Assembly (NCBI RefSeq): GCF_007981265.1
Contig: NZ_CP034363.1
Location: 868,001 to 932,000, forward strand
DNA from: Pantoea sp. CCBC3-3-1
Lineage (GTDB): Bacteria; Pseudomonadota; Gammaproteobacteria; Enterobacterales; Enterobacteriaceae
Direction of reading: 5' to 3'
Length of the DNA: 64,000 nt
Positions 4,905-24,098 of this stretch are shown in pieces; within the stretch, counting starts at the first letter, position 1, and each line of letters begins with the position of its first letter. The translations under genes and the position numbers were made by a program. The notes under the pieces are model-generated. The model had not been told where the DNA came from and did no database searches. It saw only the letters and a list, made by a program, of their open reading frames with translations.

Positions 4905-4994
4905 GGCCCACGCAAAACCGGGCACCTTACCCTACAGAAAAGCGCAGTTTGCCTGAGGGCGCCCGGTCATTACAATGTGAGCGAGGAGAACGTC

Positions 4995-7592: not shown

Positions 7593-7642
7593 CGGCTGAT
7601 TCGGCGATGCTCAACGCTCGCCGGATCCTGTCAACTGGCTTA

Positions 7643-7671
7643 AACCGGGGTTATCCAGCCCCGGTTTTTTT
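7643..7671 (+). terminator. Rho-independent terminator of acnB
   Basis: Perfect 8-bp stem AACCGGGG / CCCCGGTT (7643-7650 with 7659-7666), 8-base loop, then a T-run ending at 7671. It lies 50 bases after the acnB stop. Confidence 0.9.
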
Positions 7672-7736
7672 ATGGCCAATTTGCAGGCATTCAGTAACGG
7701 CTCCAGTCATTGCGCACGCTGGCAACATCACCGGCG

Positions 7737-8093
7737 CTATTGATCTTTTTTCTCACAATCATATGAACCAGAAATGCGGATCCCGCTGCGGCTGCTACGC
7801 ACGATCTCGACGTCCAGCGTCGGCTTGCCTTTTTGCTTCACGTAATGCATGGCGTAATCTCCCTGAAACTTAGTCGCGGCAACGATCCATCGCATCGACA
7901 CGTTGTTGTAGTCTTCCTTGCGCGCCAAAAAATCGATCTTCTGTTTTCTCACTTTGACGCCGTTAACGCTGGACACTTTTCCCTCGGCGGAAGATTGAAG
8001 ATGAAAAGGGCCACACTGCGTATCCGCCAGGCTGGTCAATGGGATTGATGAAAACAGGCAGGTTGTGACTGCCAGAATGACGTTAAATTTCAC
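7737..8093 (-). CDS. Small secreted protein of unknown function
   Basis: 118 residues. The N-terminus MKFNVILAVTTCLFSSIPLTSLA is a good Sec signal peptide with likely cleavage after about residue 23. The mature part of about 95 residues has two cysteines (TQCGPFHL and SYDCEKKD) that could form one disulfide linking the two ends. I do not recognise a family. It is convergent with acnB, sharing the region after the terminator. The composition is enterobacterial and less AT-rich than the protease gene that follows. It is probably periplasmic; a role cannot be named. Confidence 0.65.
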   Translation of the reverse strand: MKFNVILAVTTCLFSSIPLTSLADTQCGPFHLQSSAEGKVSSVNGVKVRKQKIDFLARKEDYNNVSMRWIVAATKFQGDYAMHYVKQKGKPTLDVEIVRSSRSGIRISGSYDCEKKDQ

Positions 8094-8571
8094 CTGTCGT
8101 TGGCCTTTCGTAAAGTGGCGTTAGCCTGGAATTTAGCGAGATATCAGCCATGAACGGTTAAGGTCTCTCTGTCTCGCGCCTGGCTATCAGTATAACGAAG
8201 GGGGAGGAAAAGGTGGTTGTTATCGATGGCTGGATTAATAAAATCTATGTCAACGAGCCTCTGTTGTCGCGGGAACTGAGTCGTATCGTCATTGACAATA
8301 TAGTTTGAAGCTTCTGAATAATCATTTCTTCTTAAACAAAAGAACAATGGGCTGGTGGATGTGCGAGAGTCCGGAAATATATTTGATTTAAGTCAAACCG
8401 AGTAAGGGGGTTATCATTGATCTTAACCAGGTGAAAAATTAGATCTCTGCCGTTAAAAATAAAGCAAAACGATAAGTTATAGCGTGGCTGAAAAATAAAA
8501 GCGGTAGATGAAATTATTTTCATAAATGAAACTCCCTTGTTACCCTATACCTCATTTTAAAGAGGATTTAA
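8094..8571. other. AT-rich intergenic region; nothing supported
   Basis: Nearly 480 bases between two divergently placed genes for secreted proteins. Minus-strand open frames of 67 and 63 codons (8144-8347, 8332-8523) have no recognisable product and no convincing ribosome binding site. The only clear signal is AAAGAGGATTTAA just before the protease start. Confidence 0.5.
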
Positions 8572-9381
8572 ATGAAAATTAAAACTATTATTTCAGGCTC
8601 GGGTATTATTTTATGCTTACTGATCCCTTTTAGCGGAACGGCTCGCGCCGAGAATATAAAATTTTCAGATTCAGCTATCAAAGCAGAAGGCCACTGTAAT
8701 CCAGGAGATGATATTCATACCTTATTCCCCTCTGGTTACAGTCTTCCCTCGGTAGTTATGATCTACGTCAATGATTCCTCTGGTAAACCCGTAGACTGGG
8801 GAACGGGAACGTTTATTAGCCCTGACAAAATACTGACCGCAGGGCATGTTGCATATAATATGCAGCAGTATCAAAAAAAAGGTAAAAAGGTTTACATCAC
8901 GGCCGGACTCCATGAACCCGAACCTGGAACTGCCTATGAGATTAAAAGTATCGCCATACATCCAGAGATGAATTTAGACACTTCCGATCATGACATTGCA
9001 GTGATAACGACAACCAAAAATTATCCCACTCGAACTTATCCAATTACAGAGATTACAGCAGACCTTCCTGATGCTTTTTTTGGTAGTGTGAGCTATCCGA
9101 GTGGATTAATAGAAAAAATTGGGAAGTTTAACCAATATACAGCTCGCTTTAAAATTGATGGGCATCTGTACTCATCTGCTGTTGCTTTGACTAAATGCCT
9201 TACTTATGGAGGGGAATCGGGAGCTGCACTAATTGGTTATCAAAATGATAGTCCTCTTAATGGAAAGATAGTGGGGGTTTTATCAAGTGGTTCTGGAGAT
9301 CATCCAGGTGATCCGACAACCTTGACTTATTACACCACACTGAGCGGCAGTAATTATAAATTTATTACTGATAACTTATAG
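8572..9381 (+). CDS. Secreted trypsin-like serine protease (S1 family)
   Basis: 269 residues with a Sec signal peptide (hydrophobic core about 10-20, cleavage after TARA at about residue 26). The catalytic triad can be placed: H92 (LTAGHV), D141 (SDHDIAVI) and S216 (GGESGAAL, where most S1 enzymes have GDSG). C42 and C209 could form a disulfide. The chymotrypsin-like fold is close to the V8/HtrA-like secreted proteases of bacteria rather than to DegP: there is no PDZ domain. The gene is markedly AT-rich next to acnB and yacL, which suggests acquisition. It has its own GAGG ribosome binding site. Substrate unknown; a role in host interaction or competition is possible but only an inference. 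Confidence 0.85.
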   Translation: MKIKTIISGSGIILCLLIPFSGTARAENIKFSDSAIKAEGHCNPGDDIHTLFPSGYSLPSVVMIYVNDSSGKPVDWGTGTFISPDKILTAGHVAYNMQQYQKKGKKVYITAGLHEPEPGTAYEIKSIAIHPEMNLDTSDHDIAVITTTKNYPTRTYPITEITADLPDAFFGSVSYPSGLIEKIGKFNQYTARFKIDGHLYSSAVALTKCLTYGGESGAALIGYQNDSPLNGKIVGVLSSGSGDHPGDPTTLTYYTTLSGSNYKFITDNL

Positions 9382-10223: not shown

Positions 10224-11513
10224 TCAACGTTCGTAAGTATCGTTTTCCGTCAGCGTCATCGCTGGCGCATCCACATTAACCTGTTCAAAACGCAGATGGG
10301 TAACGCCAGCAATTTTACCAAACTCCTGCGCCTGCAAGTGAAGATGGCTGAAGGTAAGATTCTTGATCGGGCATTCTGCGGCACCTTCAATAAAAAATGC
10401 GCGGGAGAAGTTCTGCGGCTGAGTAAGCTGGCTGGTGATATGTGAAATAGTGATATTTTCCAACCGCGTTAATCCTTCAATGCCTTCCACGCCCTCGCTG
10501 AGTTTACGCCAGTGCAGCGGCCGATCGTCGCTGATTTTCTGACCATAGCTGTATTGCGGAAACCAGTTCAGCTGCATCATAAAAGGATAACAGACATCTT
10601 TCAGCGTCAGATGACGCACGATAATGTCTCGGATAAAGCCGCCGCGATTGCGGGCAGACTTGATGCGAAAGCCCACGCCGGTACCGAAGAAACGATTATG
10701 CTCAATAATCACTTTTTCGATGCCGCCAGAGGTTTCGCTGCCCAGCGTAATCCCGGACCCTTTATGCAATTCACAATCACGAATGATGATCTCACTGGCC
10801 TTTCTTGCCAGCGTCTGTGCTTCAGCGCCACGGCCTGATTTGACGCAGATATTGTCATCGTTGCAGGAAACCATGCAGCGCTCGACGCGTACATGCTGAC
10901 AGGAGTCGATATCAATACCGTCGGTGCTTGGGCCTGTGGAGTTGCTGACTTTTACGTTTTGCAAAATAACGTGTTTTGAATAGCAAAGATGAATATTCCA
11001 GAAGCCCGATTCGCGCGAAGTGAAACCGCTCAGTTCGACTTCATCGCTCTGATAAACCACCACGTTTCGCGGGCGCTCACATTCGTAATCCACTACCCAG
11101 CGCAGCCCTTGCTCGCTGTATTCCGCCAGCACACCGCTTTTTTCGTCATCGCCCCAGAATCGGTGCCACCAGACCGCGCCCTGGCCATCGACAGTGCCCG
11201 CGCCGGTGACTTTAACATTCCGACATTGATTGATATTGATGATTGCCGCAGGCCAGGGCATGTCAATTCCGGCGATACGAGTCTCGATTCTGCGGTAATC
11301 GACTAATTGCTGGCTGCCCAGCAACACTGCGCCTTCGGCCAGTTCCAGCGTCATATGGCTTTTTAAAAACAGTGAACCGGTGAGGAAACGGCCCGCCGGG
11401 ATCAGGACGCTGTCGCCAGGCGCAGCCCGGTCGATAGCGCGTTGAATGGCCTGGGTGGATAAAGTTGTTGCATCAGGAACCGCATCAAAATCTAAAACGT
11501 TTAAGACGGCCAT
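10224..11513 (-). CDS. Glycoside hydrolase family 28 protein (polygalacturonase-like), cytoplasmic
   Basis: 429 residues forming a right-handed beta-helix of the GH28 pectinase family. Catalytic aspartates appear as D198 (PSTDGIDIDS) and D219-D220 (SCNDDNICVKSG); the RIK motif is at 283-285 (GFRIKSARNRGG). The usual GHG motif reads GSG (252-254), so the histidine is replaced by serine. There is no signal peptide (MAVLNVLDFDAVPD is already the first helical turn), so it should act in the cytoplasm on imported oligogalacturonides or related pectic oligomers. It is convergent with yacL, and no transporter for oligogalacturonides is adjacent. It may cooperate with the sugar-acid cluster further right. 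Confidence 0.88.
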   Translation of the reverse strand: MAVLNVLDFDAVPDATTLSTQAIQRAIDRAAPGDSVLIPAGRFLTGSLFLKSHMTLELAEGAVLLGSQQLVDYRRIETRIAGIDMPWPAAIININQCRNVKVTGAGTVDGQGAVWWHRFWGDDEKSGVLAEYSEQGLRWVVDYECERPRNVVVYQSDEVELSGFTSRESGFWNIHLCYSKHVILQNVKVSNSTGPSTDGIDIDSCQHVRVERCMVSCNDDNICVKSGRGAEAQTLARKASEIIIRDCELHKGSGITLGSETSGGIEKVIIEHNRFFGTGVGFRIKSARNRGGFIRDIIVRHLTLKDVCYPFMMQLNWFPQYSYGQKISDDRPLHWRKLSEGVEGIEGLTRLENITISHITSQLTQPQNFSRAFFIEGAAECPIKNLTFSHLHLQAQEFGKIAGVTHLRFEQVNVDAPAMTLTENDTYER

Positions 11514-12705: not shown

Positions 12706-13383
12706 TTACAACGATGCTCCCCCACACAGCACCAGCTCCTGGCCGGTCATGGCATCGGCGGTGGGAGAGAGTAAAAAACTGACCAGTGCGGCAACCTCCT
12801 GCGGCTGGATGTAGCGCCCAATCGGCGGGAGTTTAGGGGGGGAGCTTTCGCGTCCAGGCTTAGTCAGCATCGGCGTTTCCGTTGCACCTGGCGCAACAAT
12901 ATTGGCCGTAATGCCGCGAGGAGCCAGCTCGGCCGCCCAGCTTCTGACCATACCTTTCATCGCCGATTTGGTGCTGACATACTGACTACGACCCGCCGCG
13001 CCGGTCGACGTGCGGCTGCCCAGTAAAACAATACGTCCTCCTTTTGGTAACTGCGCCACCAGCTCGTTAGCGAGGATCTCCGCGACCCGGATATGCAGGT
13101 GCCAAAGCTGTTCGCTAACGCCATCATCCAGCTCGCCCAGCTGCGCGGCCGTCATCATGCCTGCTGCATGAATAATGGCATCGACCGGCGGCAGCGTGGC
13201 CAGCGTCTGTTTTAATGCAGCAGTATCGAAAAGATCGACCGAACGCGAGGCAAAATGTGGATTATCGCGCTTAACCGCTGTACGACTGAGACCGGTCACG
13301 CGCCAGCCTTCAGCCAGCAGCTTATCGGTGACGGCCGCGCCAATACCGGAGCTGGCTCCGGTGACCAGGGCATGACGGTTCAT
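12706..13383 (-). CDS. Short-chain dehydrogenase/reductase
   Basis: 225 residues, classical SDR. The dinucleotide motif is TGASSGIG (8-15), the NAG-like motif HAAG (72-75) and the active-site YxxxK Y135-K139 (SQYVSTKSAMK), with a serine at 123 or 126. The C-terminus MTGQELVLCGGASL is typical. The start overlaps the stop of the preceding yhcH-type fragment by ATGA, so translation is likely coupled. It is the last gene of the minus-strand arm of the sugar-acid cluster. Substrate unknown; SDRs in such clusters usually oxidise or reduce a hydroxyl of a sugar acid. Confidence 0.87.
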   Translation of the reverse strand: MNRHALVTGASSGIGAAVTDKLLAEGWRVTGLSRTAVKRDNPHFASRSVDLFDTAALKQTLATLPPVDAIIHAAGMMTAAQLGELDDGVSEQLWHLHIRVAEILANELVAQLPKGGRIVLLGSRTSTGAAGRSQYVSTKSAMKGMVRSWAAELAPRGITANIVAPGATETPMLTKPGRESSPPKLPPIGRYIQPQEVAALVSFLLSPTADAMTGQELVLCGGASL

Positions 13384-13628
13384 CGCTTTTCCTCTTCCAG
13401 CACCACCTGAATATCCAGGTACTGGCGGTGAAATTCCGTATGGGGGCTTTCTGAGGGCGCGGTCTGCGCCACGCCGATTGTGCAGAACCCTGCTTCACCG
13501 ACCGGCTGGATTTTGCCGTCATCATGCGCTTGTAATATGGCAAGCTGGTACCCTGGCCTTGCCGGCAGATTGCTAAGCAGATGTGGCAAGGTTGCCAGCG
13601 GCAGCGTCGTTAAATGCCCGGTGATCAT
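13380..13628 (-). pseudogene. YhcH/YjgK/YiaL family protein, N-terminal half only
   Basis: 82 residues from the ATG at 13628. The family is a cupin-like protein of about 150 residues (NanQ/YhcH, YiaL) that helps process sialic and other sugar acids, for example as an anomerase. This copy matches through EFHRQYLDIQVVLEEEKR and then stops. The second half with its conserved proline/histidine strand is missing from all frames, because the SDR gene begins at once. Both borders are ATGA overlaps. The simplest reading is a deletion from mid-yhcH to just before the SDR start. The fragment is probably inactive but its translation may still be needed for coupling. Confidence 0.7.
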
Positions 13629-14812
13629 TGCTCCTCCTTTGCTGCCAGCACCCATGCCTCGCTGACGCGAACATATTTGATCGCCTGGCGGAAATACGTG
13701 TAAGCAATATGCAGCTCGCCGTTCACACCCTCTTTGATGGTCGGATAGGAGAATTCGCGGTTCAGCTTCTGCTGTGAGTTATTGGTCATACAGTAGCCGT
13801 CGCCTTCATCCAGATTGCGCTGCCACGGCCAGCTCTGGCCACCATCTTTCGAAATCGCCAGCGTCATTGGCGCTCGCGGCGCCCCCCAGAAAGCGGTCTT
13901 ACCGCGGTGCACAACGGGCTGCGTTGCGACGGCGACATCATCCTCATCTTCTATCTCATCGTATAAGGAGAGGCGGCGTTCACTGGCGCCTTCGGCGCTC
14001 ATGGCATTGAACACCAGCGCCAGATCGCCATTCGCCAGCGTCGTCACCTGGATCGACGAGTTGTTATTCGGCAGATCGGTTGGCTGCGGAACCGACCAGC
14101 TCTCGCCCCGATCGAAGGAGCGGCTGAGATAAATATGATCCGCCCAGCGGCTGCGGTACAGCGCCAGCAGGGAGCCATCCTTCAGCAGCGTAATGTTCAT
14201 ATGCACGCAACCGGTACTTTCCGGTACGGCAACATCCCGCCAGGTTCTGCCCTTATCGGAGGAGATTTTTACCGCGCTGGTGTCCGCGTTGCCGACCCAT
14301 TTTTCACCGGGCTGCGTCACGCAGTAAAACACCGGCAGCAGCCAGTTGCCGCCAGGAAGCACCACCACCGGCTGGCGGATAAAGGTGCCGGGCTTATCCA
14401 GCAGCGTGGCGATGGGCCCCCAGGTTTTGCCCAGATCGCCGGACTGGCGGAAGCGAACAATAGCGGTATCCTGATTGCCTGACTTCTGCGCGGTGTACAT
14501 TAGCCACAGTACGTTTTCGGGATCGAGAAACAGCACCGGGTTCTGCTCAGAACGGCTGCTGTCGTCGGAAAGCTTCAGCGGTTCGCTCCAGCGCTGGCTG
14601 CCTTTCGCCAGCCGTGAACACCAGACGGAAATATCCGCAATGCCTTCCTGAGTGCCGCCAAACCAGGTACAGAGCAGATCGCCATCCGGCAGCGGCAGCA
14701 GATTAGCCGCATGATTTTGTGGGCAGACGGAAGGCAGCATCGCCACTTGCAGGGCCGCATCATTGTCTGCGGGATGTACCAGGCCATCGCGTTCCACGGT
14801 TTGCTGAGTCAT
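13625..14812 (-). CDS. Sialidase-like (BNR / Asp-box) protein, cytoplasmic
   Basis: 395 residues from the ATG at 14812 (MTQQTVERDG), chosen over an ATG four codons earlier because GGAG lies six bases before it. Four Asp-boxes (S-x-D-x-G-x-T/S-W) are present: SGDLGKTW (124-131), SSDKGRTW (184-191), SFDRGESW (232-239) and SKDGGQSW (321-328), marking a six-bladed propeller of the sialidase superfamily (BNR_2). There is no signal peptide. The family hydrolyses sialic acids or related ulosonic acids, but several cytoplasmic members have no known substrate. It overlaps the yhcH fragment by ATGA and nearly abuts the upstream symporter, so it is co-transcribed with sugar-acid genes. A Neu5Ac pathway is unlikely: nanK, nanE, nagA and nagB are absent. 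Confidence 0.83.
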   Translation of the reverse strand: MTQQTVERDGLVHPADNDAALQVAMLPSVCPQNHAANLLPLPDGDLLCTWFGGTQEGIADISVWCSRLAKGSQRWSEPLKLSDDSSRSEQNPVLFLDPENVLWLMYTAQKSGNQDTAIVRFRQSGDLGKTWGPIATLLDKPGTFIRQPVVVLPGGNWLLPVFYCVTQPGEKWVGNADTSAVKISSDKGRTWRDVAVPESTGCVHMNITLLKDGSLLALYRSRWADHIYLSRSFDRGESWSVPQPTDLPNNNSSIQVTTLANGDLALVFNAMSAEGASERRLSLYDEIEDEDDVAVATQPVVHRGKTAFWGAPRAPMTLAISKDGGQSWPWQRNLDEGDGYCMTNNSQQKLNREFSYPTIKEGVNGELHIAYTYFRQAIKYVRVSEAWVLAAKEEQ

Positions 14813-14813
14813 A

Positions 14814-16229
14814 TCAGGCTCCACTTTTTTGCAGCGTGTTTTCGGTTTCTTTAACGGTTACGCGACGCGGGATCAGGTGGTCGATAACCATAATCACCGC
14901 TGGGGTGATCAGCGCGATATACATGTTGTTAATGCCAAAGGGATCGCCGAGCACAAACCAGACGGAGGTCATTACGCAGGCGCCAATCAAGCCCCAGTTG
15001 GCTCCACGCGCGCTTTTGAACATCGGCAGATAGAAGGCGATGATCGCCACCACGGAAATCGAAAGACGAATGGCGCGCGTAAAAAACGACAGCTTCAGCA
15101 CTTCCGGGACGAACAGCACAAAAATCAGCGGCGCAAAGCCAATCGCCAGCGACAGCAGACGCGTCATTTTAAATTCGCGCTCCGGTGTAGGATGACGATA
15201 CGGCACGTAAAAATCTTTCACGATCAATGACGCAATGGCCAGCGCGACGGTGCCGACGCTGACAAAGATCGAAGCCACCAGCGAAGTCGTCACGATGCCC
15301 GCCAGCCACGGATTCATATCCTGCAAGAATACCGGCAGCGCATACAGGCTGTTGATTTCAGGATGAAGGTACTTGGCCGCCACGCCAATTAGCGCAATCG
15401 CGAGGCCAATCGGCAGGCAGAAAAAGAACGCCACCCAAGTGGCACGGCGCGCGGCTGCCGGGCTTTTTGTCGAGGAGATCGCCTGAATCACGAACTGGGT
15501 ACAGAAGATCGACCCGATCGTGCCGATCAGCCAGGCCATAATGGTGCTGGCACCGACATGACCGTCCCACGTCCAGTAGAAATCCGGCATTTTTTGCACC
15601 ATTGGCGTAATGCCGCCGGTCATTTTCAGCGCCACACCAAGAATAATCAGAATGCCAATATATTTCAGCGCACTGTGCAGCATGGTCACCCATGCCATTC
15701 CTTTCATGCCGCCAAAAGCAAAATAGAACGTGCTGACGATAGCGGTAATAAAAGCGGCCACCGGCAGGTTTACTTTCAGCACGGTGGAAATCGCTGCCGC
15801 GCCGCTGACGTAGTTACCGACGTTCACCAGTAGCAGGGCGTAAATCATGATAAGGGAGATGATGTTTTTCGTGGTGCTACCGTACTTCTCGGCAATTGCG
15901 CCAGAAATGGTGATTTTTCCGGTGTTATAAATGCGTTTTACCAGCAGCAGGCCGAAAATCGGGAAGCCGATAGCGGCACCAATTACCGACCACGAGGCGG
16001 CAAAACCGTCTTCAAACGCCGCCTGGGCGGTACCCACGGTAGATTTGGCACCGATATATTCCGACATCAGCATTATCCCAACGATAAAGGCCGGCATGGA
16101 GCGCGCACCTTCCATAAAATCGCCGGAGCTTTTACTTCTTAACCGGAACGTTAGCCAGGTAGTAAACAAAATGTAGCCCACGACCATTACAATAATGATC
16201 AGCGTGCCCTGGTTGGAAAACTCTTTCAT
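14814..16229 (-). CDS. Sodium:solute symporter family transporter
   Basis: 471 residues with about 13 hydrophobic segments, SSS family (SLC5-like core). The motif RSMPAFIVGIMLMSEYIGAKSTVGTA (residues about 43-68, quoted only in part as MLMSEYIGAKSTVG) is typical of TM1 and the sodium site. It should import a carboxylate or sugar acid with sodium. Its stop lies one base before the start of the sialidase-like gene. It is the second transporter of the cluster, separated by 78 bases from the MFS gene. Family members include SiaT and PutP; the distance to either cannot be judged here. Confidence 0.87.
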   Translation of the reverse strand: MKEFSNQGTLIIIVMVVGYILFTTWLTFRLRSKSSGDFMEGARSMPAFIVGIMLMSEYIGAKSTVGTAQAAFEDGFAASWSVIGAAIGFPIFGLLLVKRIYNTGKITISGAIAEKYGSTTKNIISLIMIYALLLVNVGNYVSGAAAISTVLKVNLPVAAFITAIVSTFYFAFGGMKGMAWVTMLHSALKYIGILIILGVALKMTGGITPMVQKMPDFYWTWDGHVGASTIMAWLIGTIGSIFCTQFVIQAISSTKSPAAARRATWVAFFFCLPIGLAIALIGVAAKYLHPEINSLYALPVFLQDMNPWLAGIVTTSLVASIFVSVGTVALAIASLIVKDFYVPYRHPTPEREFKMTRLLSLAIGFAPLIFVLFVPEVLKLSFFTRAIRLSISVVAIIAFYLPMFKSARGANWGLIGACVMTSVWFVLGDPFGINNMYIALITPAVIMVIDHLIPRRVTVKETENTLQKSGA

Positions 16230-16307
16230 AGTGATGCCTCACAAAGAGTGTAAGCGCGCCGACCTTCAGGTTCTGTTCGCGCTTGTGTAGGGTTTAAGGA
16301 AAAGGGG

Positions 16308-17627
16308 TTAAACGCGCCCCATCGACACCTGGTGAGCCGGCAGTGAGTCGTGGTCGTCAATGGGTTCGACTTTGCCCATCAGGAACAGATAGTTAAGGAT
16401 GCCAATCACCACCAGCACGGCGGAGAAGACCAGCGCCCAGGTAAAGGAACCGGTCGCCGCAACGATAGCGCCGGTGACGATCGGCCCCACCGCGCCGCCC
16501 ATATTCGAGACGGTATTTTGCAAACCGGCGACGATAGAGACGCTGTTTTTCGGCGCAACGTCGCCGGGCAGCGCCCAGACTTGCGAAGCAGCGACCGTAG
16601 TGCCGGATTTCGCGACGCAGAGCAGAAAAACGGTCATAAAGACGGAGTCAGTAAAAGGCGCAAAACCAATACACAGCGCCATCAGCAGGCCAATGGTCAG
16701 GAACAGCTTGCGGGTGGCGGTCAGCGACAGCACTTTTTTATGCACTATCCGATCGGATGCCCAGCCAGCCGCGACCTCAATAATCATTCCGCACAGCAGC
16801 GGCAGGGCGGCAATCATTCCCATTTTGATAAAATCCATGCCTTTTTCTTTTACCAGGTAAGTCGGCAGCCAGGTAATAAAGAAATAGGAGGTGTAATTGA
16901 TGGTGAAGAAGCCGATGCACATCGCCCAGATATTGCGATAGCGCAGCAGCTTGTACCATTTCATCGGCTTCACGTTTTTGTCGCCGTGCTGGCGGGCCTG
17001 GCCCTGACGGATCAGATTTACTTCCTGCGGGCTGATGTACTTGTGATCTTCCGGGTTTTCCAAGTAGATAAAGTACCAGGCAATGACCCAGAACAACCCG
17101 ACGCCACCGATGACCAGGAAGGTCAGACGCCAGTCGAACAGATAAATTATCCAGACGATCAGCGGCATTGCCACCGCGCCGCCGAATTTTGAGGCGCTGT
17201 CGAACAGGCCGGAAACGGTAGCGCGCTCTTTATCCGGGAACCAGCGGGCGGTGATCCCGGCATTGCTCGGATAAGCCGCCGCTTCGCCCACGCCTAATGC
17301 CAGACGCAGTGCCAGCAGGGATTTAAAACCGGTCGCCAGCCCCATCATTGAGGTGGCGATAGACCACCAGGCGACTGCCAGACCCAGCCCTTTTTTCTGC
17401 CCGAAACGGTCGGCAAACCAGCCCGCCGGAATTTGTAGCAGCGAATAGGACCAGAAAAACGCCGCCATAATAAAGCCCATCATTTCAGGCTTGAGGCTTA
17501 GTTCGTCGATCAGATGGGGGGCGGCCGCAGACAGCACGGTGCGGTCGATATAGTTGATGGCAATCGCCAGCCACATCAGGCCAGCAATCCACCAGCGGAT
17601 ACGGGTGTTTCCTGCAACAGTATTCAT
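16308..17627 (-). CDS. MFS transporter, anion:cation symporter (GudP/ExuT-like) family
   Basis: 439 residues from the ATG at 17627; an ATG two codons earlier is possible. Twelve hydrophobic segments are visible, with the MFS loop motif GWFADRFGQKKG after TM2 and TRWFPDKERATVSG between TM4 and TM5, as in the ACS family that imports hexuronates, glucarate, galactonate and other sugar acids. In the cluster it would import an anionic sugar acid. The presence of both an SSS and an ACS carrier suggests two related substrates or a substrate and a breakdown product. Confidence 0.88.
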   Translation of the reverse strand: MNTVAGNTRIRWWIAGLMWLAIAINYIDRTVLSAAAPHLIDELSLKPEMMGFIMAAFFWSYSLLQIPAGWFADRFGQKKGLGLAVAWWSIATSMMGLATGFKSLLALRLALGVGEAAAYPSNAGITARWFPDKERATVSGLFDSASKFGGAVAMPLIVWIIYLFDWRLTFLVIGGVGLFWVIAWYFIYLENPEDHKYISPQEVNLIRQGQARQHGDKNVKPMKWYKLLRYRNIWAMCIGFFTINYTSYFFITWLPTYLVKEKGMDFIKMGMIAALPLLCGMIIEVAAGWASDRIVHKKVLSLTATRKLFLTIGLLMALCIGFAPFTDSVFMTVFLLCVAKSGTTVAASQVWALPGDVAPKNSVSIVAGLQNTVSNMGGAVGPIVTGAIVAATGSFTWALVFSAVLVVIGILNYLFLMGKVEPIDDHDSLPAHQVSMGRV

Positions 17628-17711
17628 AGTCATCGCCCGGTACAGAGGTTGTTATTATCCGGATCGCTGTCCGGCTTTTTAGTCGGGGCGGAAACGGCGC
17701 CCCGGGCTTTA

Positions 17712-18662
17712 TTACAATGAATTCATAATATTAACTGGTCGCTGATGCTGGCAGACGCACTGGATAATCTGCTGCACGCAACGCTCGCCAATCGCGCTGA
17801 TGGCGCCATCGGTATAGCCTGCGATATGCGAGGTAGGTATGAAATTCGCCAGCGAGAACAGCGGATGGGTCTCCAGAGGTTCACGATCGAAAACATCGGC
17901 GGCGGCACCCGCTATCACGTTATCGGTCAGCGCGTGGTACAGCTGCTCTTCGTTCACCACGCCGCCGCGCGAGACGTTAATCAGAAAGGCAGATTTCTTC
18001 ATCATTCTGAGGCGTGAGCTATCAAACAGATTGCGCGTTTCAGGCGTCAGCGGGGTATGCAGCGTAATAAAGTCGCTCTGCGCGGTGAGCTCGTTGAGCG
18101 AAACAAACTCGATATTGTGCTCGGCGGCGAACTTCTCGTCGGGATAAAAATCGAAGGCCAGTACGCGCATATTGAAACCGCTGGCGCGCAGGGCAACCTG
18201 TTTGCCGATATTGCCCAGCCCAATAATGCCAAGCGTTTTGCCATAGACATCCGTAGCGAAAATACGCGGCCACTGTCCGGCACGGGTTGCTGTTGCGGCG
18301 GTCGTCACCTGACGGGCAATATTGAGGATCAGCGCGAACGCAAAATCCGCCACCGCATGCTTGTTGGCATCCGGCACGTTGGTCACAAAAACGCCGCGAG
18401 CCTGGGCGGCGATCAAATCGATATTGTCCACGCCGACGCCATGCTTGCAGACAATTTGCAGCTTTGGTGCTCGCGACAGCAGCTCTTCATTGACGTCGGT
18501 AAAGGCGACAATCATCGCTACGGTTTCTGCCAGATGTGGTTCCAGCGCGCTTAGCGGCGCGTCGGCGGGTAGCATGATCGGCTCCAGGCCCTGTTCTTTC
18601 AGTGCGGTAACAGGTCGGGCGTTATATTTTGCAAACGAGGGTGAAGTACAGAGAACTTTCAT
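17712..18662 (-). CDS. D-2-hydroxyacid dehydrogenase (NAD-binding)
   Basis: 316 residues from MKVLCTSPSFAKYN at 18662; an ATG fifteen codons upstream adds a proline/alanine-rich stretch with no family counterpart. The Rossmann motif is GLGNIG (148-153). Catalytic residues are R232 (NVSRGGVVNE), E261 (DREPLETHP) and H279 (TSHIAGYTDGA). This family reduces 2-keto acids to D-2-hydroxy acids or the reverse (phosphoglycerate, glyoxylate/hydroxypyruvate and similar). It sits between the transporters and the aldolase gene. Its exact step is not clear; it could act on a 2-keto acid intermediate of the pathway. Confidence 0.87.
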   Translation of the reverse strand: MKVLCTSPSFAKYNARPVTALKEQGLEPIMLPADAPLSALEPHLAETVAMIVAFTDVNEELLSRAPKLQIVCKHGVGVDNIDLIAAQARGVFVTNVPDANKHAVADFAFALILNIARQVTTAATATRAGQWPRIFATDVYGKTLGIIGLGNIGKQVALRASGFNMRVLAFDFYPDEKFAAEHNIEFVSLNELTAQSDFITLHTPLTPETRNLFDSSRLRMMKKSAFLINVSRGGVVNEEQLYHALTDNVIAGAAADVFDREPLETHPLFSLANFIPTSHIAGYTDGAISAIGERCVQQIIQCVCQHQRPVNIMNSL

Positions 18663-18709
18663 CGTGCTTGTCCCGGTATTGGAGCAGGCGGCAGCAGGCC
18701 GCCGCAAAA

Positions 18710-19591
18710 TTATTGGGTGTACTGATTGACGATCTGGCGGATACGCTGCGCGTCGTCGTCGCTGAAGCGTACGGCATAGCGGCTTTCACCCACGTCATAG
18801 CCCATCAGCGCCACGGCTTTTTTCACGGCGGCGGGCGAGAAGGCCACGCTGTAGAGATCGGTGCGCAGGCCGGTGACGTTTTCCTGTGCCTTGCGCGAAC
18901 CGTCGATATCACCAGCATAGAAACGCGCCCAGATAGCGTTGATCTCTTTCGGCGCGACGTTTGCCAGCCCGGAAATACAGGCGGAGCAGCCGTCGACAAA
19001 ACCCTGATGGATCAGCGAGTCAGGTCCGTTCAGCACGTCAAAGTTTTGCTGGCCTTCTGCCGCCTGTAGAAAACCGCTCAGGCTTTCATAGCTGCCCGCG
19101 CTGTCTTTAATACCAATGATATTCGGGTGAGCGGCCAGTTTGCGGACGGTTTCCGGTTGCAACGTATTGCCGGTACGCGCCGGGATGTTGTAGAGGAAAA
19201 CCGGCACGTCGAGTGCATCCGCCACGGCTTCGTAGTGGACGATCAGTTCCGCCTGCTTCAGCGGCACAAAGTAAGGCGTGATCACCGAAACAGCATCCAC
19301 GCCGAGGGCCGCGACCTGTTTGCCAAGCCGGATTGTTTCGCGAGTAGAGATTTCGCCGACGTGGGCCACCACATGCGCTTTGCCTGCTACTTCGTCCACG
19401 CAGGTTTGGGTCACCGCCAGCTTCTCCTGCTCGTTGAGCACGAAAAATTCGCCGTTGGTACCGCCACAGAAGATACCGTTGCCCGCCGCCAGCTGACGGC
19501 GGATCTGCTCGCGCATCGCGCGCTCAAAGTAGTCGCCGTCGCGGGTAAAAGGCGTCACGATGGCGGTTAATACACCGGTAATTTTTTTCAT
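18710..19591 (-). CDS. DapA/NanA-superfamily aldolase
   Basis: 293 residues from MKKITGVLTAIVTPF at 19591, which has GAGG at a good distance; an upstream ATG at 19609 overlaps the previous stop as TAATG and is also possible. The (beta/alpha)8 barrel shows GGTNGEFFVL (carboxylate-binding), the catalytic tyrosine in LYNIPARTGN (Y134) and the Schiff-base lysine in IIGIKDSAGS (K162). The family makes or cleaves pyruvate adducts: dihydrodipicolinate synthase, N-acetylneuraminate lyase, 2-keto-3-deoxy sugar acid aldolases such as YagE. GEFF in place of GE-x-x-T-L fits the catabolic 2-keto-3-deoxy acid aldolases. In this cluster, cleavage to pyruvate plus an aldehyde is the likely job. Confidence 0.88.
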   Translation of the reverse strand: MKKITGVLTAIVTPFTRDGDYFERAMREQIRRQLAAGNGIFCGGTNGEFFVLNEQEKLAVTQTCVDEVAGKAHVVAHVGEISTRETIRLGKQVAALGVDAVSVITPYFVPLKQAELIVHYEAVADALDVPVFLYNIPARTGNTLQPETVRKLAAHPNIIGIKDSAGSYESLSGFLQAAEGQQNFDVLNGPDSLIHQGFVDGCSACISGLANVAPKEINAIWARFYAGDIDGSRKAQENVTGLRTDLYSVAFSPAAVKKAVALMGYDVGESRYAVRFSDDDAQRIRQIVNQYTQ

Positions 19592-19608
19592 CATATCCTC
19601 GGTTGTCA

Positions 19609-20751
19609 TTAATGATTCAGTGCCGGAAACAGCGTCAGATAGACGTTGCGAACGTCGCTGGCGCTGACGGGAGCAGGAACGTTTTTCATCAGGCGCTGTA
19701 CGTCCAGCGCAGCCTCCACCAGATAGGGAAGATGGTCGGCATTAATGCCCAGCTCATCGAGGCTGGCGGGCAGCTTGAGGCGTTTGACCAGCGCGGCGAA
19801 GTAATCGACCAGCGCGAAAGATTTCTCTTCTTCGCTAAGCGTAAAGTCGGCATCTGGCAGCAGGTCATACGCCTGAGCGAATTTACTGACTGCCGCCGGG
19901 CGCACAAAGCGCATACAGGGTGCGAGCAGGATGGCGTTCGCCACGCCGTGGGGAAGGTGATATTTGCCGCCCAGCGGATAAGACATGGCATGCACCAGAT
20001 GCGTCCCGGCATGCGCAATCGCCGCGCCGCCGTAATAAGAGGCCCAAAGCATATCGAGACGAGCCGCGAGGTTGTCGGGTTCGGCCAGCGTTTTTTCCAG
20101 GCTGGCAAACAGCTTTTTCAGGCCGATCAGCGCATAGTTATCGCTGACCGGATTCGCTACGGTTGCCGTGAAGCACTCAATCAGATGACACAGCGCATCG
20201 ATTCCCGTAGAGGAGGCGATGTGCGCGGGCATGCTGATGGTCAGTTCAGGCGCCAGCACCACATAGTCCGGCAGCATCACCGGCGAAATAATACCGACCT
20301 TGGTCTCTTTTTCCGGGATCGCCAGGATGGCGTTTGGCGTGGCTTCTGAACCGGTGCCCGCAGTGGTTGGGATCAGCAATGAGGCGATGCGGCGCTGCGG
20401 TTTTTCGCCCTGAAGCAGCGCGTCCAGCGACGGCGCATCTTCCACACAGAGCACGGAGAGCAGTTTAGCGACGTCCAGCACGCTGCCGCCGCCAATACCA
20501 ATAACCCTGTCGATGCCCTTGATAGCCAGCGGTGCAACAATCGCCGCCACGTCATGCTGGCTTGGTTCCGGCGGCACCGAATCGATGATGTTGACGGTCG
20601 GTACCTTACTGGCAATGTGTTTAATCAGCGTTTGTACCGCTGCAATCCCCGCAATATTTTTATCCGTTACCAGCAGCACGTGCTGGCAGTCATGCAGCAG
20701 ATAGCCAATGTCATGAAGGGTTCCACTGATTACGGTGCTGTTGATATTCAT
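19609..20751 (-). CDS. Iron-containing alcohol dehydrogenase (group III)
   Basis: 380 residues. The NAD(P) motif GGGSVLD is at 87-93. Metal ligands are D185 and H189 (TGIDALCHLIECF), H254 (HLVHAMSYPLGG) and H268 (YHLPHG), all in place. Relatives include FucO, 1,3-propanediol dehydrogenase and succinic/lactaldehyde reductases. It is the first gene of the minus-strand arm, 202 bases from the divergent kinase gene, and precedes the aldolase with a TAATG junction. The natural inference is that it reduces the aldehyde released by the aldolase. Confidence 0.9.
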   Translation of the reverse strand: MNINSTVISGTLHDIGYLLHDCQHVLLVTDKNIAGIAAVQTLIKHIASKVPTVNIIDSVPPEPSQHDVAAIVAPLAIKGIDRVIGIGGGSVLDVAKLLSVLCVEDAPSLDALLQGEKPQRRIASLLIPTTAGTGSEATPNAILAIPEKETKVGIISPVMLPDYVVLAPELTISMPAHIASSTGIDALCHLIECFTATVANPVSDNYALIGLKKLFASLEKTLAEPDNLAARLDMLWASYYGGAAIAHAGTHLVHAMSYPLGGKYHLPHGVANAILLAPCMRFVRPAAVSKFAQAYDLLPDADFTLSEEEKSFALVDYFAALVKRLKLPASLDELGINADHLPYLVEAALDVQRLMKNVPAPVSASDVRNVYLTLFPALNH

Positions 20752-20862
20752 TCGCCTTACCCTGTTTCTGCCCGCGCTGTCGCGAGTGATTTTAATTAGT
20801 CATTTACTCACGACTGTGAGCGAGTGGTGGCTAATTTTATAGGGCAAATTGATTTTGATTAA

Positions 20863-20878
20863 TTTGATCGTGCTCACA
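20863..20878. promoter_or_regulatory. CRP-like site in the divergent control region
   Basis: TTTGATCGTGCTCACA fits TGTGA-N6-TCACA with one mismatch. It lies between the divergent Fe-ADH and DUF1537-kinase genes, about 75-90 bases before the kinase start, where activation of the kinase arm by CRP-cAMP would be expected. Confidence 0.5.
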
Positions 20879-20883
20879 TATAA

Positions 20884-20897
20884 TCAATCATGATTGA
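20884..20897. promoter_or_regulatory. 14-bp perfect palindrome, candidate operator of the cluster's DeoR repressor
   Basis: TCAATCATGATTGA is a perfect palindrome in the middle of the divergent promoter region. Further left, direct TTGAT repeats (20849-20867 region) and a short inverted repeat CTCAC / GTGAG (20807-20820) add structure. Palindrome position and the DeoR-type gene at the end of the kinase arm suggest local repression; binding is inferred. Confidence 0.5.
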
Positions 20898-20953
20898 ATA
20901 TAATCATTACCGGTCGAAGCGAACCGCTTCCGTTCTTTTAGCCAGGAGAAAAG

Positions 20954-22360
20954 ATGACGCGCTTGCAGTGGAAAACGCCGGTATTGGTGATCGCTGATGA
21001 CTTTACCGGTGCCAATGATGCCGGCAGCGGGTTGGCCAGAGCCGGTGCGCGGGTCAATGTGCTGTTCAATGCACGACGGGATCAGGACGCCGATGTTCAC
21101 GTCATCAACACCGACAGTCGTGCGGTCAGCGCCGGACTGGCCGCCCGCCTTGCGACGGCGGCAATCCACAGCCATGCAGACATTGCGGCCAGCGGCTGGG
21201 TTTTTAAGAAAATGGATTCGACGCTGCGTGGAAATCCCGGGGCGGAAATTGAGGCGGCGCTGCTGGCAAGCGGCGCACCGGCCGCGCTAATCGCGCCAGC
21301 GGTACCGACGCTGGGCCGCGTCACGCGGGAAGGCTGCTGTTTTATTCACGAGCAGCTGTTAACGACAACCGAATATGCCAGCGATCCAAAAACGCCCGTT
21401 ACGCAAGCCAGCGTGCTGCTGCGGCTGAAAGAACAAAGCTCGCTGCCTGTCGGACTCATTCCCTTATCTGCGGTACGCGAAGCGGATCTCGTTGAAAGGA
21501 TCCATGCGGCCATCGACCAGGGGCAGTTGCTGATCGTGGTTGATGCAGAAACCGATGACGATTTGCAGCGCATTATGCGAGCGGCTTCGCAGCTGGCTCA
21601 GCGACCGCTGCTGGCGGGCGCAGCCGGTCTCAGTGACGCGTTGGGAAACCTGCTGGCGCAAACCGCCAGGGCAGGGTTGTGCTCCACGGACAACGGCGAC
21701 GCCAGCTATGCCGAAATCGAAACCGAAACCGAAACCGAAACCGAAACCGAAGCCGAAGCCGAAACCGAAACCGTTGCAGCCACCGCGCACGGCAGAGCCT
21801 CGCAGTTCAGACCCGTGCTGGCCGTTGTTGGCTCAATGAGCGAAATCACCCAGCGCCAGCTAACCCAACTCCAGCAACATAAGCCGCTCTGCCTGATTGA
21901 CGTTGATATCACCCAGCTGTTTACCGGCTGGCAGGACAGCGATAAGTGGTTACAAACGGCACGGCAGGCTTTGCTGCAAGGACGACACTGCGTCATCCGC
22001 ACCTGTCAGCAGGCCGATCAGCGTCGGGCCATTACCGCCTTGTGCGAACGATACGATCTCTCTCGCCAGCAGCTTGGCGAAAGCATCTGCCTTTTTCTGG
22101 CAGAACTGACAGGTGACATTCTGAGCGAGGCGACGCCCGCCGGGCTGTATCTTTCGGGCGGCGACGTGGCGATAGCGGTGGCGCATAAGCTCGGTGCTCA
22201 GGGCTTTCATATTGTCGGACAGGTGGCGGGCTGCGTGCCTTATGGCCAGCTGCTGGCGTGTAAAAATGACCTGCTGGTGCTCACCAAGGCTGGCGGTTTT
22301 GGTGATGACAACACCCTGGTAGAGGTTTTTCGTTTTATTGAGGAGAAAGCGAGTGAGTAA
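20954..22360 (+). CDS. dtnK: Four-carbon acid sugar kinase (DUF1537; DtnK/OtnK family)
   Basis: 468 residues, longer than the usual 420-430 because of an acidic insert. The N-terminal substrate domain begins VLVIADDFTGANDAG (DDFTGAND 15-22). KKMDSTLRGNPG follows near residue 85, and the C-terminal nucleotide domain has LYLSGGDVAIAV (S401-D404) and the end TKAGGFGDDNTL. Family members phosphorylate the 4-hydroxyl of D-threonate, L-threonate or D-erythronate. Pairing with a PdxA2-type gene, as here, points to D-threonate kinase (DtnK). The insert at residues 254-273 is an (E-T)n tract encoded by a hexanucleotide repeat in the interdomain linker. The stop overlaps the next gene by 8 bases. Confidence 0.88.
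   Translation: MTRLQWKTPVLVIADDFTGANDAGSGLARAGARVNVLFNARRDQDADVHVINTDSRAVSAGLAARLATAAIHSHADIAASGWVFKKMDSTLRGNPGAEIEAALLASGAPAALIAPAVPTLGRVTREGCCFIHEQLLTTTEYASDPKTPVTQASVLLRLKEQSSLPVGLIPLSAVREADLVERIHAAIDQGQLLIVVDAETDDDLQRIMRAASQLAQRPLLAGAAGLSDALGNLLAQTARAGLCSTDNGDASYAEIETETETETETEAEAETETVAATAHGRASQFRPVLAVVGSMSEITQRQLTQLQQHKPLCLIDVDITQLFTGWQDSDKWLQTARQALLQGRHCVIRTCQQADQRRAITALCERYDLSRQQLGESICLFLAELTGDILSEATPAGLYLSGGDVAIAVAHKLGAQGFHIVGQVAGCVPYGQLLACKNDLLVLTKAGGFGDDNTLVEVFRFIEEKASE
21713..21772 (+). repeat. In-frame hexanucleotide tandem repeat inside the DUF1537 kinase gene
   Basis: Ten consecutive 6-base units: one GAAATC, five GAAACC, two GAAGCC, two GAAACC. They encode alternating glutamate with isoleucine, threonine or alanine. 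Length changes by whole units would keep the frame, so this is a variable-length linker rather than an on/off switch. Confidence 0.95.
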
Positions 22361-23333
22361 AATTATTGCAGTTACCATGGGCGATCCGGCGGGTATTGGT
22401 CCGGAAATTATCATCAAATCTTTGGCTGAGGGAGAACTCTCCGGCGCGCCAGCGATTGTGGTGGGATGTGCGGCGACACTACGTCGGATTCTGGCGATGG
22501 GCATCACGCCGCAGGCTGAGCTGCGCGTGCTGAACAGCGTAGCCGATGCGCATTTTGCGCCAGGCATCATTAATATTATCGACGAGCCGCTCACCGATCC
22601 CGAGGCGTTAAAGCCGGGTGTGGTGCAGGTTGATGCAGGCGATCTGGCTTACCGCTGCGTCAAACGCGCCACCGAACTGGCAATGGCGGGGGACGTTCAC
22701 GCTATCGCCACCGCGCCGCTAAATAAAGAAGCGCTGCATTCTGCCGGGCATCTCTATCCGGGGCATACTGAATTGCTGGCAAAGCTGACCAACAGCAAAG
22801 ATTACGCCATGGTGCTGCACACCGATCGCCTGAAGGTCATTCATGTCACCACGCATATCGCCCTGCGCAAGTTCCTGGATACGCTGAACCGCGAACGTGT
22901 AGAAACGGTAGTCAGCATGGCAGATACTTTCCTTAAACGCGTCGGTTTTGAAAAACCACGTATTGCCGTGGCGGGCGTCAATCCGCATGCCGGAGAAAAT
23001 GGCCTGTTCGGCGACGAAGAGATCGGGATTGTCGGTCCGGCAGTTGAGGCGATGAAAGCGCAGGGCTACAGCGTGTTCGGCCCCTGCCCGCCGGACACGG
23101 TTTTTCTGCAATGCTACGAAGGCCTGTACGATATTGTGGTGGCGATGTATCACGATCAGGGACACATCCCGCTGAAGCTGCTGGGCTTTTATGACGGGGT
23201 GAATATCACCGCCGGACTGCCGTTTATCCGCACTTCTGCCGACCACGGCACGGCTTTTGATATTGCCTGGACAGGTAAAGCGAAGTCTGAGAGCATGGCG
23301 ATTTCCATTCAGCTAGCGATGCAGCTGGCATAA
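22353..23333 (+). CDS. pdxA2: 4-phospho-D-threonate 3-dehydrogenase (PdxA2-type)
   Basis: 326 residues from the GTG at 22353, chosen because AGGAG (22341-22345) lies 7 bases upstream and it gives MSKIIAVTMGDPAGIGPE, the conserved start; an ATG at 22338 would lie inside the Shine-Dalgarno region. Metal ligands H138 (YPGHTE), H212 (NPHAGENG) and H267 (MYHDQGH) are all present. PdxA2 proteins are paralogues of the vitamin-B6 enzyme PdxA; with DUF1537 kinases they oxidise 4-phospho-threonate/erythronate, and decarboxylation yields dihydroxyacetone phosphate. The start overlaps the kinase stop. This copy is distinct from the biosynthetic pdxA, which in enterobacteria lies near rsmA/surA. Confidence 0.9.
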   Translation: MSKIIAVTMGDPAGIGPEIIIKSLAEGELSGAPAIVVGCAATLRRILAMGITPQAELRVLNSVADAHFAPGIINIIDEPLTDPEALKPGVVQVDAGDLAYRCVKRATELAMAGDVHAIATAPLNKEALHSAGHLYPGHTELLAKLTNSKDYAMVLHTDRLKVIHVTTHIALRKFLDTLNRERVETVVSMADTFLKRVGFEKPRIAVAGVNPHAGENGLFGDEEIGIVGPAVEAMKAQGYSVFGPCPPDTVFLQCYEGLYDIVVAMYHDQGHIPLKLLGFYDGVNITAGLPFIRTSADHGTAFDIAWTGKAKSESMAISIQLAMQLA

Positions 23334-23339
23334 GGACAT

Positions 23340-24098
23340 ATGAAGGGACAAAGTCGCCTCGATCAGATTATGGATTATCTGAAAAGCCATAATCTCGTTA
23401 CCGTCGATCAGCTGGTGGCTGCTATTGAAGCGTCACCCGCGACCATTCGCCGGGATCTTATTAAGCTCGATCGGGAAGGGGTGATCAGCCGGACGCACGG
23501 CGGCGTCACCCTGAATCGTTTTATTCCTGCGCAGCCGACCACGCTGGAGAAAATGCAGCGCAATCTGGCCGAGAAGCAGGCGATCGCTGTTGCTGCCGCC
23601 GGCCTGGTGAAATCTGGCGACTCCGTGGTGCTGGATGCGGGCACGACCATGCTGGAGCTGGCTCGTCAGTTAACGCATCTGCCGCTGCGGGTGATCACTG
23701 CCGACCTGCACATTGCGCTGTTTCTGTCGGCGTTTAAACAGATTGAAGTGACGATCATCGGCGGGCGGATTGATGATTCCAGCCAGTCCTGTATCGGCGA
23801 ACATGGTCGCCGACTGCTGCGGAATATCTACCCTGATATTGCTTTTGTCAGCTGTAATTCCTGGAGTCTGGAGAAGGGGATCACCACGCCGACGGAAGAG
23901 AAAGCGGGGCTGAAAGAGGATTTGCTGGCCAACGCCCGGCAACGCGTATTGCTGGCAGACAGCAGCAAATACGGTTCCTGGTCGCTGTTTTGCGCCACGC
24001 CGCTGCAAAACCTTACCGACGTCATTACGGATAAGCATTTGAGCAGTGACGCTCATCTTCAACTGAGTGGTCAGGCATTCAACCTGATCCTGACGTAA
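23340..24098 (+). CDS. DeoR/GlpR-family transcriptional regulator
   Basis: 252 residues. The N-terminal DeoR helix-turn-helix reads [20 protein letters not shown] and [17 protein letters not shown] (residues 5-45), with the typical RTHGG at about 54-58. The C-terminal sensor domain contains the [13 protein letters not shown] and [19 protein letters not shown] motifs that bind phosphorylated sugars. It is the third gene of the plus-strand arm, six bases after pdxA2. A phosphorylated intermediate such as 4-phospho-threonate or DHAP is the likely inducer, by family analogy, and the palindrome at 20884 a likely operator. Confidence 0.9.

What the first reader, a model, noticed from the sequence alone, without database searches (positions are those of the whole stretch)
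12706..24098. Sugar-acid catabolic cluster that could turn a pectin ulosaric acid (DHA) into pyruvate and DHAP
Seen: Fe-ADH, DapA-type aldolase, D-2-hydroxyacid dehydrogenase, two carboxylate-type transporters, a sialidase-like protein, half a YhcH and an SDR diverge from a DUF1537 kinase, PdxA2 and a DeoR repressor. Known: DUF1537 kinase plus PdxA2 converts D-threonate to DHAP. No sugar-acid dehydratase is present, so the aldolase substrate is probably already a 3-deoxy-2-keto acid. Inference: cleavage of 3-deoxy-D-lyxo-2-heptulosaric acid (DHA, a rhamnogalacturonan-II sugar) gives pyruvate plus D-threuronate; aldehyde reduction by the Fe-ADH gives D-threonate, with the C5/C6 threo configuration carried over, exactly the substrate of the other arm. 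A GH28 enzyme lies next door. I know of no described pathway with this set. Against it: the DHA hydrolases I recall belong to another family (GH143), and the roles of the SDR, D-2-hydroxyacid dehydrogenase and second transporter stay open.
Basis: partly seen in the sequence, partly recalled or inferred. Interest (0 to 1): 0.9.

Follow-up and report, generated by a model that had tools for sequence, protein, structure and literature searches.

The report
Probable pectin sugar-acid breakdown gene cluster
A widespread bacterial gene cluster of unassigned purpose looks like a pathway that splits a seven-carbon, sialic-acid-like sugar acid, most likely one found in plant pectin, into pyruvate and a four-carbon acid that both enter central metabolism; the enzymes have not been tested.

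Summary
The genes are as described. The aldolase/Fe-ADH arm depends on the threonate arm: 29 of 29 aldolase-positive family genomes carry a D-threonate kinase, against 20 of 169 others, including three where the kinase lies elsewhere. One 16-bp palindrome precedes both arms, also where they are separate operons. The set recurs in Agrobacterium and, as a 9-kb region, in 1043 of 5426 complete E. coli genomes. Carriers are interchangeable; several belong to organic-acid families. The aldolase pocket joins the DHDPS arginine with the Asn/Ser of 4-hydroxy-2-oxoglutarate aldolase, as a hydroxylated C4 semialdehyde acid would need. This fits cleavage of a 3-deoxy-2-heptulosaric acid to pyruvate and threuronate, reduced to D-threonate; Dha is the only natural acid of that kind I can recall. 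Substrate and activities are untested.

The parts
12706..13383 (-). SDR family oxidoreductase (module B), role open
   Evidence: found with SSS and sialidase-like genes
13380..13655 (-). remnant of a YhcH/NanQ-type anomerase gene; C-terminal half missing
13625..14824 (-). sialidase-like propeller protein (BNR_2), no obvious signal peptide (read by eye); proposed intracellular ulosaric-acid glycosidase
14814..16229 (-). SSS-family sodium:solute symporter (module B carrier)
16308..17633 (-). MFS carrier nearest the D-galactonate transporter subfamily (module A carrier)
   Evidence: TIGR00893, 344.9 bits, below its cut-off of 395
17712..18665 (-). D-2-hydroxyacid dehydrogenase (module A), 317 aa from the ATG that fits relatives (313-318 aa)
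18710..19609 (-). DapA-type class I pyruvate aldolase with Asn52/Arg145/Lys168/Ser170 pocket signature (numbering of the 299-aa ORF)
19609..20751 (-). iron-containing alcohol dehydrogenase, proposed threuronate (C4 semialdehyde acid) reductase
20787..20802 (.). operator-like palindrome on the Fe-ADH side (TGATTN6AATCA with one mismatch)
20864..20878 (.). CRP-like site; the consensus is recalled, so a lead only
20891..20906 (.). operator-like palindrome on the kinase side, exact TGATTN6AATCA
20954..22360 (+). D-threonate kinase (DUF1537 family), with a repetitive linker
22338..23333 (+). PdxA2, D-threonate 4-phosphate dehydrogenase
23340..24098 (+). DeoR-family regulator

Best explanation
[quoted passage not shown] Proposed steps: (1) the SSS or MFS carrier imports the diacid, free or as a small glycoside (inferred); (2) the sialidase-like protein frees the ulosaric acid inside the cell and, where intact, a YhcH-type anomerase helps its ring to open (inferred); in other lineages a D2HDH module takes this place, perhaps oxidising a 2-hydroxy form (speculative); (3) the DapA-type aldolase cleaves the acid to pyruvate and D-threuronate (inferred from pocket and context); (4) Fe-ADH reduces the aldehyde to D-threonate (inferred); (5) D-threonate kinase and PdxA2 turn D-threonate into DHAP and CO2 (known route, recalled; both proteins pass curated cut-offs); (6) the DeoR protein controls both arms through TGATTN6AATCA sites (shown as conserved sequence only).
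Against: No enzyme, growth or expression data. The identity of the acid rests on stereochemical reasoning and on Dha being the only natural heptulosaric acid I can recall. No RG-II-specific enzyme was seen; the GH28 neighbour is sporadic. The Fe-ADH-side operator is missing at <=1 mismatch in 41 of 78 regions. D2HDH and SDR have no firm step. The SSS and ABC carriers say nothing about an acid. The D2HDH module, with an SMP-30/gluconolactonase in Roseomonas and no kinase or PdxA2 in that stretch, could mean another substrate there. L147 has no kinase beside PdxA2. L201 has aldolase, D2HDH and Tct without Fe-ADH or kinase in the stretch; another locus of that genome (L208) has the same enzyme set with a different DapA-type protein that lacks the Asn/Arg signature.
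Confidence: 0.6

Rival explanations
1. Same route, different acid: the aldolase acts on a C7 ulosaric acid other than Dha (for example the C4 epimer) or on several, and the D2HDH lineages enter from a 3-deoxy-aldaric acid (2-hydroxy form).
For: The evidence points to a C4 semialdehyde acid that ends as D-threonate but does not fix the C4 configuration of the precursor; D2HDH and sialidase-like modules replace each other around the same core (28 and 20 of 51 named loci, 3 with both); Roseomonas adds a lactonase-like gene.
Against: No other natural 3-deoxy-heptulosaric acid known to me; sialidase-like and YhcH partners point to a bound ulosonic-type sugar.
Confidence: 0.22
2. The kinase/PdxA2 pair salvages 4-hydroxythreonine into pyridoxal phosphate, and the rest of the cluster is unrelated sugar metabolism.
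For: PMC12928451 suggests PLP synthesis for this pair in E. coli and points to a similar Sinorhizobium cluster (passages; the source it cites was not read); PMC9997740 says PdxA2 can catalyse the PdxA reaction (passages).
Against: [quoted passage not shown] both proteins pass the D-threonate cut-offs; the operator is shared with the aldolase arm even where unlinked; kinase operons without the aldolase come with a KdgT-type carrier in 5 of 5 read (four of the five judged by eye).
Confidence: 0.06
3. A sialic-acid or Kdo type pathway: the aldolase is an N-acetylneuraminate, Kdn or Kdo lyase and the D-threonate arm only happens to be adjacent.
For: Sialidase fold, YhcH/NanQ-type partner, NanA superfamily.
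Against: Products would be a hexosamine, hexose or pentose without matching enzymes in the cluster; mere adjacency does not explain 29/29 co-occurrence with unlinked cases and a shared operator; the pocket Arg is Leu in NanA.
Confidence: 0.05
4. A 2-keto-3-deoxygluconate type pathway giving pyruvate and glyceraldehyde, with Fe-ADH making glycerol.
For: KdgT-type carriers accompany kinase operons without the aldolase; DapA-type KDG aldolases exist (YagE).
Against: Leaves the threonate arm without purpose; YagE lacks the Asn, Arg and Ser.
Confidence: 0.04

Closest known systems
D-threonate catabolism (DUF1537 kinase DtnK plus PdxA2; the original papers were not readable here)
   Same: The right arm passes both curated cut-offs; simple KdgT-DtnK-PdxA2-DeoR operons share the operator in 5 of 5 read, and 2 of 5 lie beside speD/speE like this cluster.
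   Different: Here the arm is fed from inside by an aldolase and an Fe-ADH instead of, or besides, imported D-threonate (inferred).
Sialic-acid (nan) catabolic operon of E. coli
   Same: YhcH/NanQ family protein, importer and DapA-superfamily lyase, plus a sialidase-fold protein.
   Different: No NanK, NanE or NanR in the cluster; the aldolase lacks NanA's pocket and its product would enter a C4-acid route.
5-keto-4-deoxyglucarate aldolase plus tartronate semialdehyde reductase (gar pathway; recalled)
   Same: Same kind of chemistry: pyruvate released from a ketodeoxy diacid, the semialdehyde acid reduced and phosphorylated.
   Different: C7 instead of C6; DapA-type aldolase, Fe-ADH and DUF1537/PdxA2 instead of the gar enzymes.
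ExPEC genomic region GR 6, nagE..glnS, of PMC12928451
   Same: The same gene set in its CitMHS/SLC13 version (passages and table rows; annotated example).
   Different: Described gene by gene with PLP synthesis / sugar metabolism suggested; no substrate or pathway assigned in the passages I saw.
GH143 Dha hydrolase of Bacteroides (named in PMC6811678, passage)
   Same: Would act on the same sugar.
   Different: A different described family; membership not tested here.

Membership tests
D-threonate kinase (DtnK) | score over the curated NCBIfam cut-off | tested here: met
   NF047819 520.6 against 450
D-threonate kinase (DtnK) | phosphorylates D-threonate | not testable with these tools
   needs an assay
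D-threonate 4-phosphate dehydrogenase (PdxA2) | score over the curated NCBIfam cut-off | tested here: met
   NF002891 670.5 against 583
N-acetylneuraminate lyase (NanA) | score over the nanA cut-off | tested here: not met
   TIGR00683 118.2 against 382
Dihydrodipicolinate synthase (DapA) | score over the dapA cut-off | tested here: not met
   TIGR00674 189.6 against 206.15; another DapA-like gene lies elsewhere in the genome (L030)
Class I pyruvate aldolase superfamily (PF00701) | family match, Schiff-base Lys and Tyr | tested here: met
   Lys and Tyr kept in 93/94 loci
GH33-type sialidase | propeller fold close to GH33 structures | tested here: met
GH33-type sialidase | catalytic Arg triad, Tyr/Glu pair and Asp in place | tested here: inconclusive
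   several Arg, Glu, Tyr and Asp invariant over five divergent members, not mapped onto a solved active site
GH143 Dha hydrolase | sequence or structure match to GH143 | not tested
   no GH143 reference sequence was fetched
Sialic-acid catabolic (nan) operon | NanA, NanK and NanE present | tested here: not met
   no such family match in the cluster; no nanA over its cut-off in the genome; NanK and NanE not sought elsewhere
YhcH/NanQ anomerase | full-length DUF386 domain | tested here: not met
   91 aa, profile positions 27-77 of 145; second half absent
DeoR-family regulator | HTH_DeoR and DeoRC domains | tested here: met

The most novel reading that the evidence does not exclude
A pathway not described in what I could read, shared by plant-associated Enterobacterales, Agrobacterium/Sinorhizobium, a Gilliamella-like lineage and about a fifth of complete E. 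coli genomes, in which a cytoplasmic sialidase-fold glycosidase, a DapA-type Dha aldolase and an Fe-ADH threuronate reductase feed the D-threonate route, so that the RG-II sugar acid Dha ends as pyruvate and DHAP.
Probability: 0.55. Interest if true: 0.85.

Novelty: new variant of a known kind. Interest (0 to 1): 0.72.

Why it matters
If true, it assigns a function to a 9-kb island held (at least 80% of it) by 1043 of 5426 complete E. coli genomes (RefSeq complete genomes are a biased sample) and to related clusters in Erwinia, Pantoea, Klebsiella, Citrobacter, Agrobacterium and Sinorhizobium. Dha occurs in plants only in rhamnogalacturonan-II (PMC12168206, passages), and I found no description of its catabolism in the searches named below, so the question what happens to it becomes directly testable with a handful of assays. 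It would also show sialidase-type and sialic-acid-lyase-type enzymes used on a plant sugar acid.

Tried and rejected
Rejected or weakened: (1) GH28 as evidence for pectin: 6 of 198 family genomes have this GH28 (E <= 1e-100) and 2 of the 6 (own genome, G180) have the aldolase; it lies near the cluster in 4 of 51 named loci, all Pantoea. (2) DapA or NanA function for the aldolase. (3) A frameshift instead of a loss in YhcH: no second half found. (4) A direct sequence match of the sialidase-like protein to solved structures: none at 1e-3; the profile gives weak matches to sialidases; a non-significant match of the L208 homologue to chain 5mqr (E 0.17) was not pursued. (5) Wider searches for the aldolase: 16 of 295 genomes of the order (E <= 1e-70), 5 of 349 of the phylum (1e-60), 2 of 289 of the class of G564 (1e-75); a search of the family of G813 held one genome. 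(6) Literature: the searches gave no paper seen to assign Dha catabolism or this pathway. Limits: 54 papers hold 'heptulosaric', 40 were listed with the start of the abstract, and passages of 3 were seen; some searches listed 20 of 122, 1,061, 300 and 36 papers; only open-licence papers are held; one DUF1537 paper and the RG-II degradation paper were not held, and a second DUF1537 paper was not looked up. (7) A second structure prediction was not used.
Full report
What is there. The window carries, on the minus strand, an SDR, a short YhcH, a sialidase-like BNR_2 protein, an SSS symporter, an MFS carrier, a D-2-hydroxyacid dehydrogenase (D2HDH), a DapA-type aldolase and an Fe-ADH; on the plus strand, after a 202-bp gap, a DUF1537 kinase, PdxA2 and a DeoR regulator; then speD and speE. 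Kinase and PdxA2 pass the curated D-threonate cut-offs. The YhcH is a remnant: 91 aa, matching residues 1-84 of a 163-aa relative, the rest absent. Of 23 named loci with the sialidase-like gene 14 give YhcH matches and 9 do not (one of the 9, L095, ends at a contig edge; one of the 14, L109, is in pieces).

Conservation. The aldolase is in 29 of 198 family genomes at E <= 1e-60. The scan of named genomes gave 56 distinct loci. Five of them (L111-L115, 30-34% identity, Clostridia-type) had no other cluster gene at 1e-10 in the stretch held and were set aside. In the other 51, Fe-ADH is next to the aldolase in 51, and the divergent kinase-PdxA2-DeoR arm is there in 50. Behind the core, modules swap (my count): D2HDH plus MFS in 28, SSS plus sialidase-like with YhcH and/or SDR in 16, sialidase-like plus YhcH without SSS in 4, both main modules in 3. 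The window is of the rare double type. For 2 of the 4 (L100, L097; Klebsiella) the ORF lists show TerC, sialidase-like, YhcH and a CitMHS/SLC13 permease (Pfam), and E. coli E2348/69 is annotated with the same order.

In 28 unnamed family loci read at 15-20 kb, some of which are the same genomes as named ones, the aldolase has Fe-ADH beside it in all 28; the kinase arm is not beside it in L033 and L035, and L047 has PdxA2 but no kinase or DeoR there.

Distant relatives. The same core recurs with other carriers: L138 (MFS, D2HDH) and L139 (SSS, sialidase-like, YhcH); the L139 aldolase is 99% identical to one of an uncultured Gilliamella. L140 has TRAP-TAXI and YhcH; L142-L145 have D2HDH and a Tct-type carrier (Pfam run on L142 only); L146 has a sialidase-like protein (39%), YhcH and TRAP-TAXI; L147 has no kinase beside PdxA2. 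G564 has a KdgT-like gene (by eye), kinase, PdxA2 and DeoR divergent from aldolase, D2HDH, TctC and Fe-ADH at 27-49% identity. Agrobacterium fabrum has Fe-ADH, PdxA, sialidase, four-carbon acid sugar kinase, FadR regulator, ABC carrier and the aldolase at 43%. Sinorhizobium meliloti has sialidase-like, PdxA2, Fe-ADH and aldolase matches in one 19-kb stretch, without a kinase match there. Roseomonas mucosa has a Tct receptor, SMP-30-like protein, Fe-ADH, aldolase and hydroxyacid dehydrogenase, with no kinase or PdxA2 match in the stretch. G813, probably Hyphomicrobiales bacterium UR115 by record length and position, has aldolase-D2HDH-Tct at one locus and, at another, sialidase-like, PdxA, a non-orthologous DapA-type protein, Fe-ADH and a DUF1537 kinase.

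Dependence. All 29 aldolase-positive genomes have a D-threonate kinase over its cut-off; of the other 169, 20 do (two searches with the same sampling; Fisher p 5e-22; relatedness makes the p-value too small). In G115, G141 and G146 the kinase lies away from the aldolase. Five aldolase-negative kinase loci were read (L185-L189): each has a KdgT-type carrier gene (Pfam for L185, by eye for the others), kinase, PdxA2, DeoR and at least one exact operator site; 2 of 5 lie beside speD/speE. So the threonate arm can stand alone, and the aldolase arm was not seen without a kinase in this sample.

Operator. A script placed both gene starts within 600 bp in 83 divergent regions (window included), 78 of them distinct. 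All 78 hold TGATTN6AATCA with at most one mismatch, near the kinase; 99 exact sites against a shuffle mean of 0.22; 37 of 78 have two or more sites at this stringency, usually one near each arm and roughly 90-125 bp apart, and 41 show only the kinase-side site. The motif was read from such regions, so this count is descriptive. The test on unlinked operons is separate: L182 and L183 (kinase side) and L033 and L035 (Fe-ADH side) have one exact site each, 40-150 bp upstream of the gene. The E. coli region has exactly two exact sites in 16.8 kb, both in the divergent gap. In the own genome 9 exact sites occur, 8 inside open frames. This supports common control of both arms; binding is not shown.

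Aldolase pocket. In the 299-aa numbering Asn52, Tyr140, Arg145, Lys168 and Ser170 are kept in 93 of 94 loci (51 named, 28 unnamed, 15 distant; some genomes occur in two sets); the exception, L109, matches only in pieces. The non-orthologous protein of L208 is not in this count and lacks Asn and Arg. Models and mutants of human 4-hydroxy-2-oxoglutarate aldolase give the equivalent Asn to the distal carboxylate and the Ser to the 4-hydroxyl, and E. coli DHDPS Arg138 is important for aspartate semialdehyde (PMC3188589, passages). NanA and YagE have Leu at the Arg position. A pocket with all of these suits an aldehyde that leaves a 4-hydroxyl and carries a carboxylate about as far away as in aspartate semialdehyde, as threuronate does. 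This is inference from alignment; nothing was docked.

Stereochemistry (own reasoning). [quoted passage not shown] Cleavage between C3 and C4 leaves OHC-C5(left)-C6(right)-COOH, D-threuronate; reducing the aldehyde and turning the chain gives C2 left, C3 right, D-threonate. Kdo, Neu5Ac, KDG and ketodeoxyglucarate would give other products that do not enter the right arm.

Open points. D2HDH and SDR have no firm role; the Klebsiella and E. coli versions lack both, so neither belongs to the core. D2HDH may oxidise a 2-hydroxy (3-deoxy-aldaric) entry form. YhcH loss here and in 9 relatives may be tolerated if ring opening is fast enough on its own.

Novelty. The gene list of the E. coli version is in print (PMC12928451, passages and table rows), and a D-threonate metabolism region is mentioned as associated with colibactin-bearing genomes (PMC9125672, passages). 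In the searches, with the limits stated under Tried and rejected, I saw no assignment of this pathway or of Dha catabolism. I file it as a new variant of a known kind: known enzyme families and a known end route, in a combination and for a substrate not described in what I could read.

Noticed in passing
window 21711-21773: A hexanucleotide repeat (CCGAAA, 10.5 copies) inside the D-threonate kinase gene encodes a Glu-Thr-rich stretch between its two domains; the repeat unit keeps the frame.
   Followed up: partly
window 4364-4391: A single CRISPR direct-repeat match (CRISPR-DR4); no repeat family covering it was found in 3000-9000.
   Followed up: partly
window 10224-11513: GH28 protein without an obvious signal peptide (by eye), best solved match an exo-poly-galacturonosidase (3jur); near the cluster only in some Pantoea relatives.
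   Followed up: yes
L100:11003-11764, L215:8943-9701: A TerC-family membrane protein sits inside the Klebsiella/E. coli version of the operon; its role there is unexplained.
   Followed up: no
L148:12377-14766: A second MFS gene follows module A in several loci; in L148 a putative cyclase (PF04199) follows too, which hints at a further substrate.
   Followed up: no
L208:8579-9487: A non-orthologous DapA-type protein stands in a parallel cluster of a genome that also has the orthologous aldolase elsewhere (L201).
   Followed up: partly
L031:1336-2229: A third DapA-type protein of the own genome beside a PhzF-like gene (by eye), function unknown.
   Followed up: no
L217:6856-7800: The Roseomonas mucosa plasmid version of the aldolase operon includes an SMP-30/gluconolactonase-like gene.
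   Followed up: no
window 45657-45748: CAG-rich tandem repeat.
   Followed up: no
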